From Streptomyces uncialis (GTDB lineage: Bacteria > Actinomycetota > Actinomycetes > Streptomycetales > Streptomycetaceae), in NCBI RefSeq assembly GCF_036250755.1, contig NZ_CP109583.1, forward strand, positions 2,976,001-3,040,000: a stretch of 64,000 bases of DNA, given 5' to 3'. Shown here one piece after another: positions 32,201 to 63,249 of this stretch (position 1 is its first letter; the number at the start of each line of letters is the position of its first letter). The translations under genes and the position numbers were made by a program. A model generated the notes under the pieces. The model was not told where the DNA came from. It was given only the letters and a program-made list of their open reading frames with translations, and made no database searches.

Positions 32201-32446
32201 GCGCAGTTCCCCGCGCCCCTTTGGGGCGCGTCCGGTCGGTTCTTGGGGTCGGTGCCGGTCGGGATTCTCCGTCCTCGCTCCAACGCGCTCGGTACGGACG
32301 TCCAGCGGAGCTACTGAAGAGCATCGGAGTCTGCGGGCAGAGATTCCCGCCCACCCCCTCCCGCAGCAGCGCGAGTCCGCGAGGTGGGGGGTGAAACACA
32401 ACCTCAGGAGGCTGAGGCGCCCCCAAAGGGGCGCGGGGAACTGCGC
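32201..32446 (+). repeat. Dispersed 246-bp element A with 26-bp terminal inverted repeats
   Basis: Left end 32201-32226 (GCGCAGTTCCCCGCGCCCCT then TTGGGG) is the exact inverse of 32421-32446. Inside lie two segments conserved with the copies at 59198-59417 and 62430-62674: one beginning GGTCGGTGCCGGTCGGGATT and one beginning GACTGAAGAGCATCGGAGTC. The second contains a hairpin (CTGCGGG to CCCGCAG). No coding capacity. It resembles a MITE or a structured-RNA element in architecture, but no transposase or target duplication was recognised. Confidence 0.75.
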
Positions 32447-32764
32447 ACCCACGAACGGCCCGCACGGGAACAAGTACGTCCAGGTGTGGAACCCCAGGGG
32501 CGCGGGGAACTGCGCACCCACGAACGACCTGTGCGGGAAACAAGTACGTCCAGCCGGACAGACCTCGGAAGCGCAAGCGAAGGCGTCCCGCGGGGAACTG
32601 CGCACCCACGAACGACCCGCACAGGAACAAGTACGCCCAGCCGGACGGACCTCGGAAGCGCAAGCGAAGGCGACCCGCGGGGAACTGCGCACCCACGAAC
32701 GGCCCGCACGGGAACAAGTACGTCCAGCCGGACGGACCTCGGAAGCGCGAGCGAAGGCGACCCG
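32435..32764 (+). repeat. Tandem array of four 69-88 bp units abutting pfkA
   Basis: Units start with GGGGAACTGCGCACCCACGA at 32435, 32504, 32592 and 32679. Units 2-4 are 86-88 bp and nearly identical, containing GGAACAAGTACG and CGGAAGCGCAAGCGAAGGCG; unit 1 is shorter. The last unit runs into the pfkA stop codon. The flank of element A at 32140-32200 is an inverted partial copy. Confidence 0.75.
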
Positions 32765-33790
32765 TTAGAAGACCGACTCCGCCTCGTCCATGCGGTCCTT
32801 CGGGACCGTTTTGAGTTCGGTGACCGCGTCGGCGAGGGGAACCATGACGACGTCCGTACCCCGCAGCGCGGTCATCTTGCCGGACTCCCCCCGGTGCGCC
32901 GCCTCCACCGCGTGCCAGCCGAAGCGCGTGGCGAGGACGCGGTCGTACGCGGTGGGCGTCCCACCCCGCTGGACATGGCCGAGGATGACCGGCTTGGCCT
33001 CTTTGCCGAGGCGCCGCTGGAGCTCGAAGGCGAGCGCGGTGCCGATGCCCTGGAAGCGCTCGTGACCGAACCGGTCGATCTCGCCCTTCTGGTAGTCCAT
33101 CGACCCCTCGATCGGGTGGGCGCCCTCGGCGACACAGATCACGGCGAACTTCTTGCCGCGCGAGAAGCGTTCCTCGACCAGGGCGACCAGGTCGTCCGGG
33201 TCGAACGGGCGCTCCGGCAGACAGATGCCGTGGGCTCCCGCGGCCATCCCGGACTCCAGGGCGATCCACCCGGCGTGTCGTCCCATGACCTCGACGACCA
33301 TGACCCGCTGGTGGGACTCCGCCGTGGTCTTGAGCCGGTCCATCGCCTCGGTGGCGACCCCGACGGCCGTGTCGAAGCCGAAGGTGCGGTCGGTGGAGGA
33401 GATGTCGTTGTCGATGGTCTTGGGGACCCCGACGACCGGGAGACCCGCGTCGGCGAGCATCCGCGCGGCGGTCAGCGTGCCCTCGCCGCCGATCGGGATG
33501 AGGACGTCGAAGCCGATCTCCTTGGCCAGCTGGCGGATGTTCTCGCAGGCCGCGCGGAAGCGGTCCCGCTCCAGCCGGGAGGAGCCGAGGATGGTGCCGC
33601 CGCGGGCGAGGATGCCGCTGACGGCGTTGAGGTCGAGGGGACGGTAGCGCCCGTCGAGGAGCCCGGCGTAGCCGTCCTCGAAGCCGATGACCTCGTCGCC
33701 GTGATGGGTGACGGCCCGGTGCACGACCGAACGGATCACTGCGTTCAGGCCCGGGCAGTCGCCGCCTGCGGTGAGTACTCCGATACGCAT
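32765..33790 (-). CDS. pfkA: 6-phosphofructokinase
   Basis: Phosphorylates fructose-6-phosphate in glycolysis. 341 residues from ATG 33790 (GGAGA upstream); the longer frame is not coding. Motifs: MRIGVLTAGGDCPGLNAVIR for nucleotide/phosphate, GGEGTLTAARML, the catalytic PKTIDNDISSTDRTFG and the effector-site VEVMGRHAGWIAL. PKTIDND and GGEGT are typical of the actinobacterial ATP-dependent group. From memory it corresponds to the PfkA2-type gene beside pta-ackA-pyk in S. coelicolor. Divergent from pta, so the 277-bp gap holds both promoters. Confidence 0.95.
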   Translation of the reverse strand: MRIGVLTAGGDCPGLNAVIRSVVHRAVTHHGDEVIGFEDGYAGLLDGRYRPLDLNAVSGILARGGTILGSSRLERDRFRAACENIRQLAKEIGFDVLIPIGGEGTLTAARMLADAGLPVVGVPKTIDNDISSTDRTFGFDTAVGVATEAMDRLKTTAESHQRVMVVEVMGRHAGWIALESGMAAGAHGICLPERPFDPDDLVALVEERFSRGKKFAVICVAEGAHPIEGSMDYQKGEIDRFGHERFQGIGTALAFELQRRLGKEAKPVILGHVQRGGTPTAYDRVLATRFGWHAVEAAHRGESGKMTALRGTDVVMVPLADAVTELKTVPKDRMDEAESVF

Positions 33791-42110: not shown

Positions 42111-42611
42111 GACTTTCCTCCTTCTCGGACGTACATCTCCGGCCCTGGTCGGCCGCGTTCGGCGGCCCGGCCGGGCAGGGATGGGAGAAGTGCGGCGTCG
42201 TCGGCGGGAAGAGCGCCCGCCCTCGGTGACGCGCACGCGCCCGAATCACCGGCGTTCACCCCCGAGCGACAGCCACCGGTCGCGTCCGACGGGTCGGACG
42301 CGACATGCGGACAGGCTCCGCCGGTCGGCGAAGACCCCCCTGTCCCGGACCGGTGCCCTTGTCACCGGCCGCCCGGTGGGGACCCAGGGTCCCAAGGGCC
42401 CGGACTGGCTGCCGGGTGGAGAGGGAATGGACCGAGCGTGGCCGATCGTGGTGTATTACGGCCGCTGGCACAAGGGGCTTCACTACTCGCCGGTAACGAA
42501 CCGGCCACCACCCCGCGACCGACAGACACCACACGGACACAACGAGTGAGCGGACACAAGTCGGCACATCCGGTCATCGGGGATGAATCGTGACGGACCG
42601 CCGACCATGAC
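42111..42611. other. Long 5' region of the DUF6230 operon
   Basis: About 500 bp between the DUF6230 start and the operator at 42612. It is A+T-richer than average between 42420 and 42600. Short open frames on both strands lack ribosome sites or family features. A long leader or an unrecognised small gene cannot be excluded. Confidence 0.35.
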
Positions 42612-43809: not shown

Positions 43810-43980
43810 GGGTACATCCTCCCCCCTCGGCGGAGCACGGCGAAAAGCGGTGCGCCGGTACGCGGGGTACGGGGGTCCGGGCGCCCCGGCACCGCCCGCC
43901 GGAAGGCCGCCGTCCGGTCCCGCCGGGCGGGGGTGAGGGGCCGCCGGCGCTTTGACATCCGGCGCTCGGCGAAGCTCGGC

Positions 43981-44138
43981 GCGGGTGGTCGGCGGGGCTT
44001 GGCGCGGGCGGTCGGCGGCGCTCGGCCCGAGCGGTTGGCGGGGCTTGGCGCGGGCGGTCGGCGGGGCCAGGGGTGGGTGGTCGGCGGGGCCAGGGGTGGG
44101 CGGTCGGCGTTCGGCGCGGGTGGTCGGCGGCGTTCGGC
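43981..44138. repeat. 23-bp minisatellite, seven units
   Basis: Units begin at 43981, 44004, 44027, 44050, 44073, 44096 (20 bp) and 44116, each with a GTCGGCGGGG-type core (for example GCGGGCGGTCGGCGG), and an eighth degenerate unit follows. It fills the 364-bp gap between the MarR gene end and the cnoX start; the remaining 170 bp nearest cnoX must hold its promoter. Confidence 0.8.
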
Positions 44139-44173
44139 TCGGCCGGTCCACGGCTCGGGCGGCGGCCGGAGGG

Positions 44174-46270: not shown

Positions 46271-46678
46271 GCGCAGTTCCCCGCGCCCCTTTTCCTGTGC
46301 CCGCGCAGCCCTTCCCCTGCGGGTGGGTGGCGCCTGGATGGTGCGTTCCCCCGTTCCCGCCCGGCTGCGGGCAGGCTTCGCGCAGTTCCCCGCGCCCCTG
46401 AGGTCGCGCCACTCACGGTGTCCGTTCGCCCAGAACACGCCCCAAAGGGGCGCGGGGAACTGCGCAAAAGACGAGGGCGGACCCGCACCCGACGAACAAG
46501 CCCGAAGGGGCAGCATCCAGGGGCGCGGGGAACTGCGCGAGCAACCCAGAGCCATCCGCAGCCGAACAGGAACCGTAAGGGGCGCGACCTCAGGGGCGCG
46601 GGGAACTGCGCCCCACGAACGGCCCGCACCCGACGGAGTACGGCCAGAGGCACGGACCAGGGGCGCGGGGAACCGCGC
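46271..46678. repeat. Cluster of six 20-mer repeats in a convergent junction
   Basis: Copies of AGGGGCGCGGGGAACTGCGC: inverted at 46271-46290 and 46380-46399, direct at 46446-46465, 46519-46538, 46592-46611 and (one mismatch) 46659-46678. Direct copies are 73, 73 and 67 bp apart. The module between the first two direct copies (GACGAGGGCGGACCCGCACC) recurs at 59150-59198 and 62675-62727. The region between the P450 and icmA (46042-46778) otherwise has no gene. Confidence 0.8.
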
Positions 46679-46778
46679 ACCCCACGAGCGACGGCACAGG
46701 AACGGAGTACGTCCCGCACAGGCGACCCAGGGGCGCGAGCGAAGGCGACCCGCGGACGCGGCCGGGGACCGACGGGGG

Positions 46779-58968: not shown

Positions 58969-59125
58969 CCCGCCCCCCGGCACACACACTCCCCCCGGCT
59001 TCCCCGTGGCCTTCCCCCGGCCCACCCGGAACCCGGGGGGTCCCGTGTTCCCGGGGCCCCTTCGCGCCCGCCTCTGAGGTTCGCGGAGCTGGGCGTACTC
59101 GTCCCTGTGCGGGTCGTTCGTGGGT

Positions 59126-59197
59126 GCGCAGTTCCCCGCGCCCCTGGATGCTGCCCCCTTGCGGTCGCTCTTCGGGTGCGGGTCCGCCCTCGTCTTC
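59126..59197. repeat. Flanking 20-mer and module next to element B
   Basis: An inverted copy of AGGGGCGCGGGGAACTGCGC at 59126-59145, then a module with GGATGCTGCCCCCTTGCGG that also occurs (other strand) near 46466-46518 and 62675-62727. No gene is seen in the 58969-59513 gap. Confidence 0.7.
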
Positions 59198-59417
59198 GCG
59201 CAGTTCCCCGCGCCCCTGAAGGGGCACCCCCTTCCTCCCGCAGTCGCGCTGCTGCGGGAGGGGGTGGGCGGGACTCTCTGCCCGCAGACTCCGATGCTCT
59301 TCAGTCGGGTAAGGGGGATGTCCGACCGAGCGCGTTGGAGCGAGGACGGAGAATCCCGACCGGCACCGACCCGAAGAACAAACAGGTGGCGCCCCAAAGG
59401 GGCGCGGGGAACTGCGC
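59198..59417 (-). repeat. Dispersed 220-bp element B with 20-bp terminal inverted repeats
   Basis: The same element as at 32201-32446 and 62430-62674 but in the opposite orientation. Ends 59198-59217 and 59398-59417 are exact inverses. Both conserved internal segments are present, one containing GACCGAGCGCGTTGGAGCG and the other CTGCCCGCAGACTCCGATG on the + strand. It sits between the PepSY gene and meaB (convergent). Confidence 0.75.
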
Positions 59418-62429: not shown

Positions 62430-62674
62430 GCGCAGTTCCCCGCGCCCCTTTGGGGCGCGTTCTGCCGTCTTTTGGGTCGGTGCCGGTCGGGATTCTCCGT
62501 CCTCGCTCCAACGCGCTCGGTCGGACTTCCCTCTTGCCCGACTGAAGAGCATCGGAGTCTGCGGGCAGAGATTCCCGCCCACCCCCTCCCGCAGCCATGC
62601 GACTGCACGAGGAGGATGCCGAAAAGCAACAGCAAGGGGCTGAGGCGCCCCCAAAGGGGCGCGGGGAACTGCGC
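62430..62674 (+). repeat. Dispersed 245-bp element C with 26-bp terminal inverted repeats
   Basis: Ends 62430-62455 and 62649-62674 are exact inverses (GCGCAGTTCCCCGCGCCCCT then TTGGGG). The internal segments match element A (32201) almost base for base (GGTCGGTGCCGGTCGGGATT; CTGAAGAGCATCGGAGTCTG), while the two intervening stretches differ. Another 20-mer follows at 62728-62747, separated by the recurring module also found at 46466 and 59150. Confidence 0.75.
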
Positions 62675-62747
62675 AAAAGACGAGGGCGGACCCGCACCCG
62701 AGAAGCAACCGCAAGGGGGCAGCATCCAGGGGCGCGGGGAACTGCGC

Positions 62748-63249
62748 ACCCACGTCCGACCCGCACAGGGACAAGTACGCCCAGCCGGAGAAACCCCGGG
62801 CGTGAGCGCGGACGGGTCTCTTTCGGGGATCTCTTGTGGGGGAATGCCGGGGGGCGGGAACCGGACGGAGCGGGGGGTCGGGCGGGGGTCGGAGGGGGCG
62901 GGGTACGGGCGGGGCGGGCGGGTGGGACTTCGCACGTGTCAGCCCGGCGCGCGGGGCGGCGCCACCCCGTGGGAGGGACCCGTTCCGGCCGGGCGGCGGC
63001 GACAACCCCCCTGCCGGGGCAGGAAAAGGTGGTCGGCCAGGCCAACGGGGAGACGGGGGCCGGTAGGGTTGTGTGCGGCCGCCCGTATGCCGGACGGTCA
63101 TGGCCGGGGTCCAGGTGTCGAAGGGCGTGCGTCGGGGCGGCAGTCCGGACCCCGCTGTTGATCTGACACCATTCCCCGGGGCGCCGTTCGGGCGGATGAC
63201 CGGTGCTCGTTGGAGAGTTTTGCGACCAGGGGACGGATGGGACCGCGCA
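62748..63249 (+). other. Long region upstream of scy
   Basis: About 500 bp. The first 60 bp are a partial copy of the repeat flank (CACAGGGACAAGTACGCCCAG). The rest is G-rich on the + strand and becomes A+T-richer at 63150-63230, where the scy promoter probably lies. Short frames here lack ribosome sites; nothing is called. Confidence 0.4.

What the first reader, a model, noticed from the sequence alone, without database searches (positions are those of the whole stretch)
32201..32446. MITE-like dispersed element A, one of three copies in 31 kb
Elements at 32201-32446, 59198-59417 (inverted) and 62430-62674 share 20-26 bp perfect terminal inverted repeats and two highly conserved internal blocks of about 47 and 55 bp, separated by variable stretches. 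The second block can fold (CTGCGGG with CCCGCAG). Conserved blocks with variable linkers suggest selection for structure or protein binding rather than mere recent copying. No transposase is nearby.
Basis: seen in the sequence. Interest (0 to 1): 0.8.

Follow-up and report, generated by a model that had tools for sequence, protein, structure and literature searches.

The report
Streptomyces dispersed hairpin repeat family
The repeats are copies of a short DNA element that folds like a long hairpin, present over 200 times in this Streptomyces genome, between genes wherever checked, and found with a conserved fold in other Streptomyces species.

Summary
The three elements are among about 213 copies in this 9.26-Mb Streptomyces genome; all 49 copies in a contiguous 1.2-Mb sample are intergenic by my gene calls. 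The interpretation needs correcting. The "terminal inverted repeats" are two units of a separate repeat (18-mer core, 1157 copies). They flank 44 of 49 copies here, but 15 of 75 homologues elsewhere have that core nearby. The element is the ~113-nt core: two conserved blocks that pair into a bulged rod with a variable loop. Model matches occur in 17 of 61 Streptomyces genomes, own included, with compensatory changes (17 of 33 pairs changed on both sides). No Rfam family matches. Positions are mostly inherited: 23 of 24 S. uncialis copies sit at the same place here. Loop and linker modules differ 8-13% between such orthologues, blocks 1% or less; 70% of new loop 10-mers occur in other copies, against 3.5% for random change, so copies exchange modules. 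The nearest known kind is the ERIC/NEMIS-type palindromic miniature repeat. No Y1 transposase was found; how it spread and what it does are inferred.

The parts
32246..32358 (-). Core hairpin of copy 1 (favoured folded strand: minus); intergenic between a response-regulator gene and a phosphofructokinase gene (convergent)
   Evidence: model R1, 130 bits on the minus strand, 20.7 on the plus strand (this copy is in the model's own alignment); Pfam of neighbours; gene calls
59260..59372 (+). Core hairpin of copy 2 (favoured folded strand: plus); intergenic between a PepSY-protein gene and meaB (convergent)
   Evidence: model R1, 129.1 bits against 20.5 (copy is in the model's alignment)
62474..62586 (-). 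Core hairpin of copy 3 (favoured folded strand: minus); downstream of a glyoxalase-family gene
   Evidence: model R1, 132 bits against 22.4 (copy is in the model's alignment)
32313..32366 (.). Conserved block 2 of copy 1: 5' arm of the rod on the favoured strand (its last bases lie outside the core model)
32243..32293 (.). Conserved block 1 of copy 1: 3' arm of the rod on the favoured strand
32201..32229 (.).
   Evidence: 1157 genome copies of the 18-mer core; core present near 15 of 75 homologues
32416..32446 (.). REP-like unit flanking copy 1 on the right, first of an array continuing to about 32766
59198..59417 (.).
62430..62674 (.).

Best explanation
It is a family of dispersed intergenic palindromic miniature elements, seen here only in Streptomyces. 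The unit is a ~113-nt rod: an outer helix of about 25 pairs with two single-A bulges, a CAGY bulge, an inner helix of about 8 pairs, and a variable apical loop. Shown: conserved fold, high copy number in some species, intergenic siting away from divergent promoters, mostly inherited positions, and exchange of loop and linker modules between copies. Inferred: the copies arose long ago as a non-autonomous (ERIC/NEMIS-like) element moved by machinery not identified here. Also inferred: it persists because the hairpin, at or between the 3' ends of genes, is harmless or useful as an RNA rod or protein site. Short ectopic gene conversion between copies, anchored on the conserved blocks, is the most likely cause of the shuffled loops.
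For: Copy numbers 213/153/1157 with zero controls. All 49 copies in 1.2 Mb are intergenic; 2 of 49 are in divergent gaps against 11-12 expected, p = 5e-4. The fold holds in a MAFFT-only alignment of 54 homologues from 26 other genomes plus 4 own copies: 91.5% of cells paired against 81.2% shuffled, 17 of 33 pairs with double changes (2 of 500 shuffles reach this), covariation 0.256 against 0.098 shuffled and at most 0.075 for slid partners. Model R2 finds 1-42 copies in 16 of 60 other Streptomyces genomes, among them G007, G014, G026 and G073, which gave no sequence to the model. 23 of 24 S. uncialis copies are present at the same site. Slots 2, 4, 6 diverge 12.8, 13.1, 8.3% against 0.6 and 1.0% in the blocks over 21 of 24 pairs. 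New loop 10-mers occur in other copies 363/522, control 394/11158. Orientation to neighbouring genes is not consistent.
Against: No transposase partner was identified, and no clean, repeated target-site duplication: one candidate junction with a 7-bp direct repeat; the second absent site is a messy replacement. No plasmid match by blastn for an own element or a homologue, and no phage match for a homologue, unusual for a mobile element. Near-absolute block conservation is more than neutral decay predicts and favours a function. Single-sequence folding does not single out one strand.
Confidence: 0.6

Rival explanations
1. A host-beneficial multi-copy structured RNA (small RNA or mRNA 3'-end protein-binding/processing element) amplified in some lineages; each copy is under selection.
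For: Blocks nearly invariant in 162 parsed copies (162 of 177 found) while adjacent slots diverge about ten times more than the ~1-2% of most flanks. Fold conserved across species. G-U rather than A-C departures on one strand, 118 against 22 cells, and at all four polymorphic rod pairs that stay paired in own copies.
Against: No consistent orientation to neighbouring genes: on the favoured strand ++10, +-18, --19, -+2 in this genome and ++13, +-10, --4, -+3 elsewhere. Per base pair the strand preference is 15 against 8, p = 0.21. Copy number ranges from none found to over 200 among species.
Confidence: 0.2
2. REP/REPIN-type system: the flanking REP pairs are the mobile unit, moved by a REP-associated Y1 transposase (RAYT), and the core is cargo.
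For: 44 of 49 copies lie between inverted REP-like units; 1157 REP cores, often in arrays.
Against: No Y1 transposase (PF01797) in this genome at E up to 10, while 10 of 14 control genomes ring. 60 of 75 homologues lack the REP core within about 300 nt.
Confidence: 0.05
3. Ordinary recent MITE with the REP units as its terminal repeats.
For: Copy number, inverted ends, intergenic location.
Against: Conserved unit and covarying fold end inside the REPs; no empty site among 24 orthologous comparisons.
Confidence: 0.08
4. Folded single-stranded DNA recombination site (attC-like logic, recalled: imperfect hairpin, extrahelical bases, variable terminal loop).
For: Bulged As on one strand and a variable loop; copy-to-copy exchange.
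Against: No bias of element strand with chromosome arm, p at least 0.137 at the four origin positions tried; copies dispersed, not in cassette arrays; no recombinase tested.
Confidence: 0.05

Closest known systems
ERIC / IRU / RU-1 (127-bp enterobacterial repeat)
   Same: Small intergenic repeat whose transcript forms a long stem-loop; very variable copy number between species; transposase mobilisation only hypothesised (passages of PMC2229807 and PMC10969869)
   Different: Very GC-rich, reassorting variable loop modules, seen only in Streptomyces; ERIC has TA at its ends and target-site duplications in those passages; no alignment to ERIC was made
NEMIS / Correia elements (Neisseria)
   Same: Small inverted-repeat element whose transcript stem is an RNase III substrate (passages)
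   Different: Correia/NEMIS has 24-bp terminal repeats and duplications; here the rod extends over most of the element and the REP 'ends' are separate
REP / REPIN with RAYT transposase
   Same: Short palindromic units, 1157 cores here, in intergenic arrays next to the element
   Different: No Y1 transposase in this genome; the core is a distinct ~113-nt unit
'Mobile/repeat sequence candidates' (MRSC) of the 50-genome RNA survey, NAR 2024, PMC11109978
   Same: Same operational class: structured motif, many copies, inconsistent orientation (passages read); the survey reports several Streptomyces motifs
   Different: Cannot say whether this motif is one of its 250 MRSCs: supplements could not be read here

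Membership tests
MITE (non-autonomous TIR element) | Terminal inverted repeats bounding the mobile unit | tested here: inconclusive
MITE (non-autonomous TIR element) | Target-site duplication at empty orthologous sites | tested here: inconclusive
   One absent site with a 7-bp direct repeat, one messy, none empty in 24 comparisons
MITE (non-autonomous TIR element) | Related autonomous transposase with matching ends | not tested
   Only the Y1 family was searched genome-wide; 10 nearby ORFs had no transposase domain
ERIC-type palindromic intergenic repeat | Intergenic, multi-copy, long imperfect palindrome | tested here: met
ERIC-type palindromic intergenic repeat | Sequence homology to ERIC | not tested
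   No alignment to ERIC was made
ERIC-type palindromic intergenic repeat | TA at the termini and TA target | tested here: inconclusive
   True ends are not fixed; no shared TA seen by eye in the alignments
REP/REPIN-RAYT | Y1 (HUH) transposase in the genome | tested here: not met
   with positive controls
Any Rfam family | Score above gathering threshold | tested here: not met
   Whole window (only a che1 RNA elsewhere); copy 3 at E up to 5 gave two weak hits far below threshold, MIR168 and DUF805b; eight homologue loci, none at E up to 0.5
Intrinsic terminator | Hairpin followed by a U run | tested here: not met
   By eye, no U run after the rod on either strand in the sequences printed
Orientation-dependent cis-regulatory RNA (riboswitch, leader) | Consistent position and strand to a gene | tested here: not met

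The most novel reading that the evidence does not exclude
A new class of structured nucleic-acid replicator in Streptomyces. An invariant bulged rod is recognised by a dedicated protein or RNA-guided system, and its variable loop and linkers are actively rewritten from other copies, so that hundreds of copies keep one rod but carry ever-changing loop modules.
Probability: 0.17. Interest if true: 0.82.

Novelty: new member of a known kind. Interest (0 to 1): 0.55.

Why it matters
A much-studied genus carries a structured repeat, over 200 copies in this genome and up to 42 found in the other genomes scored with the model, that matches no Rfam family here. It gives Streptomyces an ERIC-like system with a deep structural record, a natural assay of copy-to-copy sequence exchange (slots changing about ten times more than the flanks, around fixed blocks), and a testable 3'-end RNA or protein site near many genes. 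It also warns that repeat-flanked gaps in Streptomyces genomes are modular and conversion-prone.

Tried and rejected
(1) REP/RAYT: rejected, no Y1 transposase. (2) Covariation inside variable slot 4: my first impression of compensatory stems failed the control. Swapping right halves among copies folds as well (observed -9.61, swapped -9.83 kcal/mol on one strand; -9.80 against -9.73 on the other), so the apical stem is not claimed. (3) Strand by folding energy: a first pair of folds suggested the minus strand (z -4.1 against -1.4), but over the exact core the two strands are comparable (own copies z -1.5/-1.0, -2.4/-3.8, -3.9/-2.7, favoured strand first), and in both homologues tried the other strand has the lower energy. 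The strand rests on G-U against A-C counts (118 against 22 cells), which per pair is 15 against 8, p = 0.21. (4) Lagging-strand ssDNA model: no arm bias; an early count by eye of a subset had looked biased and did not hold. (5) Four homologue loci (L229, L245, L246, L269) lie beside purine nucleoside phosphorylase genes; this genome has its nearest copy on the other side of that gene, so no gene association is claimed. (6) L402/L409 was first taken as a shared element but is a coding-type chance match. (7) Single pattern matches per genome are often not elements: of the 30 per-genome loci L240-L269, 15 were elements (my count). Fifteen that I had set aside were rescanned with R2: none gave a full match, one (L254) a partial one. 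Hence I use model R2 (17 of 61) and genomes with at least 4 matches (63 of 392 with own, hand count), not 230 of 392. (8) Plasmid and phage collections: no match. (9) The slot pattern used parsed 48 of 49 own copies in the sample and 114 of 128 S. uncialis copies. Most of the 14 missed differ in slots; a few carry single changes in block 2. The pattern fixes most block letters, so block invariance is biased upward. The less biased check is that mismatch-tolerant and model searches found no further diverged copy in 1.2 Mb except one weak hit. (10) In one search two pairs of the structure string were misplaced; one search is the corrected run.

Full report
Observation. Their inverted ends, two conserved blocks and variable linkers are confirmed. 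Block 1 occurs 213 times (up to 3 mismatches in 26), block 2 153 times (up to 3 in 51), and the 18-mer of the ends 1157 times in the 9.26-Mb genome; the reversed-pattern controls are 0. The only Rfam hit of the window at gathering threshold is a che1 RNA elsewhere. Copy 3 at a relaxed threshold gives two weak hits far below theirs.

Anatomy. In a contiguous 1.2 Mb I found 49 copies. 48 parse into fixed blocks and slots: block 1, an 11-nt slot 3 with two main types, a variable slot 4 (41 distinct in 48), a short slot 5, block 2, and a variable slot 6 (35 distinct in 48). The four rod pairs that vary and still pair do so through G-U. One further rod pair breaks in 21 of 45 sequences, and the pairs nearest the loop vary the other way or fail in a few. 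A covariance model of this fold (R1) scores the three window copies at 129-132 bits on the favoured strand and 20-22 on the other; they are among its own 45 sequences. Model R2 recovers 48 full copies in the window plus 1.14 Mb, and one weak extra.

What the ends are. All 49 copies have the REP-like unit on one side (within 120 nt) and 44 also on the other (within 420 nt). These units form arrays of their own. Of 75 homologues in other species, 15 have the REP core within about 300 nt, while the rod is conserved. So the REP pair is a neighbourhood, not the element's ends.

Family across the genus. A blastn of the core found nothing in 60 other genomes (at most 14 candidates scored per genome). 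Model R1 found five other species at E about 1e-4, with compensatory changes. A gap-free pattern then showed many copies in other Streptomyces: own 215, next highest 30; 230 of 392 genomes have any match, 63 of 392 at least four (hand count); the control is 0 in most genomes and at most 2. Single matches are often not elements, so the firmer figure is model R2: 17 of 61 genomes at E up to 0.001, own included, with 1 to 42 copies in the other 16 and own at the 63 scored. In 296 genomes of the class, 268 of them outside the genus, the non-Streptomyces ones have 0-2 pattern matches; four of those loci scanned with R2 gave no match. R2 itself was not run on whole non-Streptomyces genomes.

Structure test. 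I aligned 54 of 72 non-identical homologues (near-duplicates left out by eye) from 26 genomes plus 4 own copies with MAFFT, without fitting to a structure. With the named structure, 91.5% of 1902 cells pair (shuffled 81.2%), 17 of 33 pairs change on both sides (2 of 500 shuffles reach this), and the covariation score is 0.256 (shuffled 0.098, 0 of 500; slid partners at most 0.075). The fold is therefore conserved. The heart is CCGCCCGCAG opposite CGAGGACGG, with two single-A bulges on the 3' side and a CAGY bulge on the 5' side. The strand is only favoured: 118 G-U against 22 A-C cells, but 15 against 8 pairs, p = 0.21, and folding energies do not separate strands. Eight homologue loci have no Rfam match at E up to 0.5.

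Siting. All 49 copies lie between genes called by a simple codon-usage caller of mine (80% of the sequence coding). There are 18 convergent, 29 tandem and 2 divergent, against 10-11, 26-27 and 11-12 expected; the divergent depletion has p = 5e-4. On the favoured strand neighbours are ++10, +-18, --19, -+2 here and ++13, +-10, --4, -+3 in 30 of 75 homologue loci; the other 45 lacked a call on at least one side, and 2 of 75 overlapped a called frame. So orientation is free and divergent gaps are avoided. None of 114 copies from the complete parts of the lists lies in the outer 0.9/0.57 Mb of the chromosome (limits chosen after seeing the data). No arm-strand bias was found.

Dynamics. 24 S. uncialis copies could be placed in the 1.2 Mb by flanks of about 95-99.5% identity. 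In 23 the element is at the same site here; the other is a copy here that lacks most of the rod (the listing was cut). In the 21 of 24 pairs that parse, slots 2, 4 and 6 differ by 12.8, 13.1 and 8.3%, blocks 1 and 2 by 0.6 and 1.0%. Slot 4 differs in 19 of 21. Of 522 ten-mers new in one orthologue, 363 occur in another copy of the same genome's sample; random substitution gives 394 of 11158. This is copy-to-copy exchange, most simply short gene conversion. Swapping slot-4 halves between copies does not weaken folding, so loop pairing is not what is conserved. Between two other species (G148, G009), seven of the G148 places could be compared: five are shared and two are not, one of these with a 7-bp direct repeat at the joint.

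Mechanism. Best reading: a formerly mobile, ERIC/NEMIS-like palindromic miniature element that is now mostly inherited, with its loops shuffled by conversion. Its rod may act at transcript 3' ends (inferred). No Y1 transposase was found in the genome, with positive controls, so RAYT-driven REP movement is not the likely driver today. A selected host RNA function is the main rival.

Prior work. Searches for the element's letters in 5.39 million open papers found none for the REP and block strings, and 53 papers for shorter strings, of which the 20 listed are unrelated by title. Topic searches listed no paper that by title or abstract is about this repeat; these were listings only. Passages were read of PMC11109978, PMC2864571, PMC2229807 and PMC10969869. 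The first reports 250 mobile/repeat sequence candidates whose list I could not read, so prior listing there is possible.

Noticed in passing
window 42250-42346 (-): che1 RNA (RF02935) at 75 bits, above its gathering score.
   Followed up: no
window 32427-32766, 46380-46750, 59057-59200, 62649-62816: Arrays of REP-like units (AGGGGCGCGGGGAACTGCGC plus spacers, period about 70-87 nt); units are gained or lost between S. uncialis and this genome.
   Followed up: partly
window 43961-44152: Tandem repeat with a 23-nt period, about six overlapping copies of the repeat finder's unit.
   Followed up: no
L229, L245, L246, L269: In four species the element lies beside a purine nucleoside phosphorylase gene, in L229 between it and a phosphomannomutase-like gene, a gap that lacks it in this genome.
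   Followed up: partly
L268 and L228 flanks: In other species the element abuts tandem intergenic repeats whose unit begins like the element's own 5' end.
   Followed up: no
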